From Anaerolineaceae bacterium (GTDB lineage: Bacteria; Chloroflexota; Anaerolineae; Aggregatilineales; Phototrophicaceae), in contig NZXX01000013.1 of assembly GCA_002702065.1 (NCBI GenBank), forward strand, positions 62,001-126,000: a stretch of DNA of 64,000 nt, read 5' to 3'. The notes beneath the pieces were generated by a model. That model was not told where the DNA came from. It did no database searches and worked only from the letters and a program-made list of their open reading frames with translations. This document shows, one piece after another, positions 45,758-47,015 of this stretch (positions are counted from its first letter, which is position 1; each line of letters begins with the position of its first letter). The position numbers and the translations under genes are program-made.

Positions 45758-46150
45758 ATGTTTGACGACAAAACCCGTGCATTCCTTCAGAAGCCGCTGC
45801 TGGCCCGCATGTCCACCATCGACCCCGACGGTTACCCGCATACCGTGCCCGTCTGGTTTCTGCTGGATGGCGACGAACTGGCGATCATCGCCGTGCGCCA
45901 GACGCGCAAAATCGGCCACATTCAGGCCAACCCTAAAGGCTGCGTCAGCATCGGCGGCGATTCGGGTGATGGAGGCGGTTATCTGCTCAAGGGGACGTTC
46001 AGCATCCACGAAGACACCGATCAGGCATGGACGCGCAAGCTGTGCTACCAGTATGAATCACCGGAAAAAGCCGAGCGCGACATCGCCGACTGGGCTGACC
46101 TGGATATGATCGTGCTGCGTTTCAAACCGGAGCAGGTGCTGGTTGTGTGA
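45758..46150 (+). CDS. Pyridoxamine 5'-phosphate oxidase-like (PPOX class) protein
   Basis: ARMSTIDPDGYPHTVPVWFLLDGDELAII...RKIGHIQANPKGCVSI. Confidence 0.88.
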   Translation: MFDDKTRAFLQKPLLARMSTIDPDGYPHTVPVWFLLDGDELAIIAVRQTRKIGHIQANPKGCVSIGGDSGDGGGYLLKGTFSIHEDTDQAWTRKLCYQYESPEKAERDIADWADLDMIVLRFKPEQVLVV

Positions 46151-46151
46151 G
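46108..46151. repeat. Left copy of a 44-bp direct repeat (end of the PPOX gene)
   Basis: GATCGTGCTGCGTTTCAAACCGGAGCAGGTGCTGGTTGTGTGAG; 41/44 matches at 46894-46937. Confidence 0.9.
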
Positions 46152-46185
46152 ATGCGACCGCTGAAAGCCAATACCTCGACAGGCG

Positions 46186-46191
46186 GGTATA
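46186..46191 (+). promoter_or_regulatory. -10-like TATAAT upstream of mntA/hepT
   Basis: cgggTATAATaataaaa, ~30 bp before the ATG at 46220. Confidence 0.35.
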
Positions 46192-46219
46192 ATAATAAAA
46201 ATTCGCGGAGATTGGCCTT

Positions 46220-46534
46220 ATGAGCAATAGGACGAAATCCATCCTTTCGTTGGACAACTTACGTTCGCGACGCCATGAAATCCTGGCGATTGCTGCCCGG
46301 CATGGTGCTTCAAATGTGCGTGTCTTTGGCAGTGTCGCCCGTGATGAAGCTACCACCAGCAGCGATGTGGACTTGTTAGTCGATCAGGATTGGTCTCGGT
46401 TATCCAGTTGGGGCGGCATGGGTTTAATCGTCGAACTGGAAGATCTGCTGGATTGCAAGGTCGATGTGACAACCGTTGACGAACTCAAACCGCTGATCCG
46501 CCAGCGCGTAATACGGGAAGCGGTTCCGCTGTGA
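46220..46534 (+). CDS. MntA-like nucleotidyltransferase (antitoxin of HEPT/MNT systems)
   Basis: VFGSVARDEATTSSDVDLLVDQD = GSxAR...SDxDL. Confidence 0.88.
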   Translation: MSNRTKSILSLDNLRSRRHEILAIAARHGASNVRVFGSVARDEATTSSDVDLLVDQDWSRLSSWGGMGLIVELEDLLDCKVDVTTVDELKPLIRQRVIREAVPL

Positions 46535-46755
46535 GCACACGCGATGATCGTGCTTTCGTCGAAGATATGCTAACACGGATTGACCTGGCACAGGAATTTA
46601 CCGCCTTCCGCAATTTTGTCATTCACGTCTATTGGAACATCAAGCTAGAGCGTATCTGGGAAATCGTTGAAAACGATCTACCGACCCTGAAAGTCCAGCT
46701 TCAGAACCTTCTTGGAACGTTGCCCGATCACGAAACGGACGGTAAATCCACCTGA
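46531..46755 (+). CDS. HepT-like (DUF86) toxin with an internal deletion
   Basis: GTGA overlap with MntA; DDRAFVEDMLTRIDLAQEFTA joined directly to FRNFVIHVYWNIKLERIWEIVENDLPTLK; 74 aa. Confidence 0.75.
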   Translation: MSTRDDRAFVEDMLTRIDLAQEFTAFRNFVIHVYWNIKLERIWEIVENDLPTLKVQLQNLLGTLPDHETDGKST

Positions 46756-46893
46756 AAGAAACCGTTTCGCTGTTCGATGCGGCCCGGATGGAGACGCACA
46801 AAGCATCGCCACGATTCCGCTGGACAGATTCACAGCCAATGGCACGGCACCGGTGATCCTGATCTTTTCATAGTGGGGATTGTCGCAGTTGCT

Positions 46894-46937
46894 GATCGTG
46901 CTGCGCTTCAAACCGGAGCAGGTGCTGGGCGTGTGAG
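46894..46937. repeat. Right copy of the 44-bp direct repeat
   Basis: GATCGTGCTGCGCTTCAAACCGGAGCAGGTGCTGGGCGTGTGAG. Confidence 0.9.
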
Positions 46938-47015
46938 TTGTGCCCCTGGCGGGCAATGCTAGAATATCGGCTGCGGGTAAAGATTTATCACCACGTGTCC
47001 AAAACAGGCGGCAAC

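What the first reader, a model, noticed from the sequence alone, without database searches (positions are those of the whole stretch)
46531..46755. HepT with an in-frame internal deletion that keeps the RX4HXY motif
Full-length HepT/DUF86 proteins are about 110-140 aa. This one is 74 aa: the N-terminal helix (DDRAFVEDMLTRIDLAQEFTA) joins directly to the catalytic helix (FRNFVIHVYW), so roughly 40-45 aa of the middle are missing without a frameshift. The RX4HXY motif, whose Tyr is the AMPylation target in characterised HEPT/MNT systems, is intact, as is the MntA GSxAR/SDxDL motif. It is either a disarmed toxin beside a live antitoxin or a minimal HepT variant.
Basis: partly seen in the sequence, partly recalled or inferred. 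Interest (0 to 1): 0.6.

Follow-up and report, generated by a model that had tools for sequence, protein, structure and literature searches.

The report
Disarmed HepT toxin beside intact antitoxin
A bacterial toxin gene has lost its middle third in one clean in-frame deletion while the neighbouring antitoxin gene is intact; related genomes show the same one-sided decay again and again, so this is most likely an ordinary, recently broken toxin and not a new miniature toxin.

Summary
ORF 46531-46755 (+, 74 aa) is a HepT homologue whose start overlaps the stop of an intact mntA. Against every close relative it lacks exactly 48 codons (144 nt). RX4HXY is intact. The lost part carries helices alpha2 and alpha3, the helix-2 acidic residue and the main dimer helix of solved HepTs. 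A full-length relative models confidently and matches HepT crystal structures; the 74-aa protein models less well and matches no HEPN structure.

The exact junction is unique among 154 genomes of its order. The surviving codons look constrained on the window's own branch, so the deletion is probably recent.

Across the class, 24 of 148 intact mntA genes with a recognisable hepT have a broken one (17 more have none), whereas at most 2 of 125 intact hepT genes lack an intact mntA. Other internally deleted HepTs occur, with different junctions and no consistent retention of the motif. I read this as a decayed type VII toxin-antitoxin module. Low to moderate interest, mostly for the measured one-sided decay.

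The parts
46220..46534 (+). mntA: intact MNT-domain nucleotidyltransferase antitoxin, 104 aa
   Evidence: PF01909 40.3 bits, cut-off 21; best relative 75% identical over 103 aa in G008; codon model omega on the window branch 0.08, omega=1 rejected
46328..46372 (+). GSX10DXD catalytic motif of MntA (GSVARDEATTSSDVD), intact
   Evidence: read from the translation; the Asp after GSVAR is the commonest residue there (70 of 122 sequences), so it is not damage; motif as defined in PMC7641770
46531..46755 (+). hepT remnant: 74 aa, in-frame internal deletion, start overlaps mntA stop (GTGA)
46602..46603 (+). deletion junction (Glu-Phe-Thr | Ala-Phe-Arg-Asn); 48 codons present in all relatives are missing here. 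Position ambiguous by a few bases
   Evidence: codon alignment with relatives; junction pattern exact only in this genome
46609..46632 (+). RX4HXY motif (RNFVIHVY), intact; its Tyr is the AMPylation target in characterised systems
   Evidence: translation; motif and Tyr role from PMC7641770
46107..46154 (+). 3' end of a pyridoxamine 5'-phosphate oxidase-like gene (45758-46150), first copy of a 48-nt direct repeat flanking the mntA-hepT cassette
   Evidence: 44 of 48 identical to 46893-46940
46893..46940 (+). second, orphan copy of that 3' end, downstream of hepT

Best explanation
This is a type VII (HEPN/MNT) toxin-antitoxin module whose toxin gene has been inactivated by one in-frame 144-nt deletion. 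The deletion joins the end of helix alpha1 directly to the RX4HXY stretch and the last helix, so the product lacks alpha2 and alpha3. Those helices build the dimer and the RNA cleft and carry the conserved acidic residue, so the product should no longer be an RNase toxin (inferred). MntA stays intact and constrained because losing it before the toxin would be harmful, while losing the toxin is tolerated. The deletion is probably recent, since the surviving HepT codons still look constrained. Shown here: the anatomy, the deletion size, uniqueness among the genomes searched, intact MntA, and one-sided decay across the class. Inferred: loss of toxicity, and that selection for disarmament explains it.
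For: Nine distinct relatives including G008, G021, G085, G143, G057 and G048 are full length at this point; the window lacks 48 codons. Two near-invariant columns of the HepT alignment (the Glu of IIGEA and the Trp before the RX4H helix) lie in the lost part. PMC3710099 places the conserved acidic residue in helix-2 next to the active site. PMC11586414 finds alpha2 to be the main dimer helix, and Q44/E47 of the Legionella protein needed for RNase activity and toxicity. Structure prediction: full-length relative pLDDT 93, best PDB matches are HepT/HEPN toxins at probability about 1; the 74-aa protein pLDDT 79.8 and no HEPN match, best probability 0.23. The exact junction is found only in this genome among 154 of the order and not in viral contigs; in 249 genomes of the class no other hit to the 74-aa protein starts before residue 12. 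With intact MntA: 124 intact HepT, 24 broken, 17 none detected; with intact HepT: 123 intact MntA, 2 flagged, one of which reads as intact and the other as a possible N-terminal frameshift. Fisher p about 2e-5 for broken against broken.
Against: The remnant keeps its reading frame, its coupled start, RX4HXY and low omega on the window branch (0.02; omega=1 rejected, twice delta-lnL about 7.4), which a still-used protein would also show. AlphaFold gives its two long helices high confidence. In the Legionella protein R98A and H103A hardly affected toxicity, so the state of the motif alone says little either way. No toxicity or expression data.
Confidence: 0.86

Rival explanations
1. A working minimal HepT: helix alpha1 plus the RX4HXY stretch and last helix suffice for RNase activity, neutralised by MntA.
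For: RX4HXY intact, frame and coupled start kept, low omega on the surviving codons; another 51-aa in-frame short HepT with RX4HXY lies beside an intact MntA in G206 (L225).
Against: The lost part holds the dimer helix and the helix-2 acidic residue. Other internally deleted HepTs do not keep the motif consistently: L220 and L080 lose it in frame, and L017 has Arg in place of His. No shared junction, no clade of short forms.
Confidence: 0.04
2. A retained decoy: the short protein is non-toxic but still folds as an alpha1/last-helix hairpin that docks on MntA and is AMPylated at Tyr34, tuning MntA or the operon.
For: PMC11586414, citing earlier work, says MNT alpha4 docks on alpha1 and alpha6 of HEPN, and equivalents of both survive here; Tyr and motif intact; helices predicted with high confidence; constraint on surviving codons.
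Against: In Legionella the MNT interface uses alpha3 and alpha4, of which alpha3 is lost. The constraint may date from before the deletion. One-off occurrence.
Confidence: 0.06
3. An assembly or sequencing artefact: the organism has a full-length hepT.
For: The genome is a 14-contig assembly with 5.09% estimated contamination; no reads were available. hepT is broken by different means in many genomes of the class, some of which may be assembly indels.
Against: A clean 144-nt in-frame loss is not a typical sequencing indel, and no long repeat at the ends is known that could collapse. Assembly error should hit mntA as often as hepT, and it does not.
Confidence: 0.04

Closest known systems
HepT/MntA (SO_3166/SO_3165) of Shewanella oneidensis, type VII toxin-antitoxin; PMC7641770, PDB 5yep, 6m6u, 7bxo
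   Same: Gene adjacency, RX4HXY in HepT, GSX10DXD in MntA; the full-length relative's model matches these structures
   Different: HepT here lacks 48 codons covering alpha2-alpha3; the 74-aa model matches none of these structures
HEPN-MNT module of Legionella pneumophila, PMC11586414
   Same: RX4HXY and an MNT partner
   Different: Its active-site residues Q44/E47 and its main dimer helix lie on alpha2, which is missing here
Orphan antitoxins left by degraded toxin-antitoxin pairs, e.g. Klebsiella survey PMC7192599
   Same: Antitoxin kept, toxin degraded or absent
   Different: That survey covers type II and IV pairs; here a type VII pair, with the toxin partly kept in frame

Membership tests
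HepT toxin (PF01934 / DUF86) | Score over the Pfam gathering cut-off | tested here: met
   38.9 bits against 23.5, but only profile positions 81-119 of 120; full-length relatives cover 1-120 or 2-120
HepT toxin (PF01934 / DUF86) | RX4HXY motif | tested here: met
   RNFVIHVY, residues 27-34
HepT toxin (PF01934 / DUF86) | Complete HEPN helical bundle with alpha2/alpha3 (dimer helix and cleft) | tested here: not met
   48 codons missing; no HEPN structure matched by the model, unlike the full-length relative
HepT toxin (PF01934 / DUF86) | Conserved acidic residue in helix-2 | tested here: not met
   Glu of IIGEA, 90% or more conserved in the alignment, lies in the deleted part
HepT toxin (NCBIfam NF047751 equivalog) | Score over the curated cut-off of 60 bits | tested here: inconclusive
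   27.9 bits, but full-length relatives also fall short at 43-46 bits, so the cut-off does not separate deleted from intact here
MntA antitoxin (MNT, PF01909) | Nucleotidyltransferase domain with GSX10DXD, adjacent to hepT | tested here: met
   40.3 bits against 21; motif intact; GTGA overlap with hepT
Type VII toxin-antitoxin system | MntA AMPylates HepT and so blocks its RNase toxicity | not testable with these tools
   needs expression and biochemistry

The most novel reading that the evidence does not exclude
The 74-aa protein is a retained non-toxic mini-HepT: it keeps the MntA docking helices and the AMPylation tyrosine, and serves as a decoy substrate or regulator that tunes MntA, which in turn protects the cell against other HepT toxins.
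Probability: 0.05. Interest if true: 0.6.

Novelty: new member of a known kind. Interest (0 to 1): 0.3.

Why it matters
On its own it is a broken toxin gene. With the survey it gives a measured case of one-sided decay in HEPN/MNT modules: an intact antitoxin often stands beside a ruined toxin, and an intact toxin is almost never found without its antitoxin. That pattern is what is expected if HepT is really toxic in its native hosts, so it is indirect evidence, from genomes alone, that these predicted toxins are toxic where they live. It also gives a set of natural HepT deletions for structure-function tests.

Tried and rejected
Phmmer of the short protein against PDB found no HEPN chain. Damage to MntA at the position after GSVAR was considered and rejected: Asp is common there. 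Failure of the NCBIfam cut-off as evidence of decay was considered and rejected, since intact relatives fail it too. A search for the same junction in viral contigs and of the protein against plasmids found nothing. PADLOC gave only candidate-defence models (PDC-S09 and others) for MntA and a weak JetA hit for the remnant, taken as chance. Deletion by slippage between short direct repeats: 'CCGCC' near both ends is possible, but the intact ancestral allele is not available, so it is not claimed. No promoter or terminator signal above chance on the sense strand. Literature searches for described truncated HepTs or toxin decay in this system gave none in the held library; the library omits most subscription journals.

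Full report
What is there. The ORF at 46531-46755 (+) encodes 74 aa, begins with GTG overlapping the stop of mntA (GTGA) and carries RNFVIHVY, a perfect RX4HXY. Pfam HepT-like scores 38.9 bits (cut-off 23.5), but only the last third of the profile, positions 81-119, is matched; full-length relatives match positions 1-120 or 2-120. Upstream, mntA (46220-46534) is an intact 104-aa MNT protein with GSX10DXD.

Size and place of the deletion. Relatives were found through MntA and HepT. The closest modules are in G008 (MntA 75% identical), G021, G085, G143 (HepT identical to that of L044), G057 and G048. All have HepTs of the usual length. In the codon alignment the window lacks exactly 48 codons (144 nt) between Glu-Phe-Thr, the end of helix alpha1, and Ala-Phe-Arg-Asn, the start of the RX4HXY stretch.

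What was lost. In the model of the full-length relative L044 the lost stretch corresponds to residues 23-70: the helices 26-31, 33-51 and 55-60 and the first part of the helix 66-77 that leads into RX4HXY. In an alignment of 33 HepTs, two near-invariant columns lie there, the Glu of IIGEA and a Trp. PMC3710099 places the conserved acidic residue in helix-2 beside the active site. PMC11586414 reports alpha2 as the main dimer helix, a cleft made by alpha2-alpha4, and loss of RNase activity and toxicity on mutating Q44 and E47, while R98A and H103A of RX4HXY had negligible effect. An intact RX4HXY is therefore weak evidence for activity, and the deletion should be disabling; this is inference from homologues.

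Structure. The full-length relative models at pLDDT 93 and its best PDB matches are HepT/HEPN toxins (7bxo, 5yep, 7ae2 and others, probability about 1), although E-values are modest. The 74-aa protein models at pLDDT 79.8, weaker around the junction and motif, and matches no HEPN structure; the best hit has probability 0.23. Sequence comparison of the HepT profile with PDB finds the Shewanella HepT entries.

Is it a one-off? A degenerate pattern for the junction, with up to 2 mismatches, gave an exact match only in this genome among 154 of the order; the four inexact matches read Ile-Ala-Ala-Phe, i.e. the unbroken gene. Viral contigs gave none. Searching the 74-aa protein in 249 genomes of the class, nearly all other hits start at residues 21-24, just where the RX4HXY stretch begins, and none starts before residue 12; so nothing else was seen that joins the first helix to that stretch, though this search does not show gaps directly.

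Age and constraint. A two-ratio codon model on seven modules gives omega 0.02 on the window branch for the shared HepT codons and 0.08 for MntA. Setting omega to 1 on that branch lowers lnL by 3.7 and 5.8 respectively. Synonymous sites are near saturation and only 67 HepT codons are used, so this is a rough test. It suggests that the branch mostly evolved under constraint and that the deletion is recent, but it cannot tell a recent deletion from a still-used short protein.

One-sided decay. I collected mntA-hepT modules from relatives at family, order and class level, removed repeats by sequence, and scored each partner with profile HMMs. With an intact MntA and enough flanking sequence (165 modules, the window's own among them), HepT is intact in 124, broken in 24 and not detected in 17. 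With an intact HepT (125 modules), MntA is intact in 123 and flagged in 2; on reading, one of these is intact but divergent and the other may have an N-terminal frameshift. Fisher p is about 2e-5 for broken against broken. A smaller first version gave 12 of 44 against 0 of 52. Caveats: the modules are not independent, the two samples share loci, the loci were chosen by similarity to the queries, and some breaks may be assembly indels; but assembly indels should strike both genes alike. An undetected partner may also be a different HEPN family.

Other shortened HepTs beside intact MntA. Besides frameshifts and stops, several have large internal deletions: L225 in G206 (51 aa, RX4HXY kept, in frame), L220 in G201 (in frame, RX4HXY lost), L017 in G029 (in frame, His of the motif replaced by Arg), L080 (in frame, motif lost) and L099 (out of frame, alpha1 and the motif in different frames). 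Junctions differ and the motif is not consistently kept, which is what decay predicts and a conserved mini-toxin does not.

Verdict. It is best read as a recently disarmed toxin in a known kind of toxin-antitoxin module. Orphan antitoxins beside degraded toxins are known in other toxin-antitoxin types (PMC7192599). The retained-decoy reading cannot be excluded, and the assembly could not be checked against reads.

Noticed in passing
window 46107-46154 and 46893-46940: A 48-nt direct repeat (44 of 48 identical), the 3' end of the upstream pyridoxamine-oxidase-like gene, flanks the mntA-hepT cassette; the orphan second copy lies after hepT. The PPOX relative in the same genus (G001, L122) has no mntA-hepT beside it in the stretch fetched. 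Possibly a trace of how the cassette arrived.
   Followed up: partly
L008/L010 (own genome, C7:309279-309896): A second broken hepT in the same genome: its two halves lie in different frames with a stop, beside an intact mntA.
   Followed up: partly
L005-L007 (own genome, C13:184691-186653): Three mntA-hepT modules in tandem, same orientation, about 670 bp apart, all with intact genes.
   Followed up: no
L225 (G206 C153), about 1776-1931 +: A 51-aa HepT with an independent in-frame internal deletion that keeps RX4HXY, beside an intact MntA.
   Followed up: partly
L269 (G365 C302), downstream of mntA at 1181-1444 -: The hepT here seems split by an insertion of roughly 150 nt between the two halves of the gene.
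   Followed up: no
window 46000-46999: G+C drops to 0.53 around mntA-hepT against about 0.60 on either side, in keeping with a horizontally acquired cassette.
   Followed up: no
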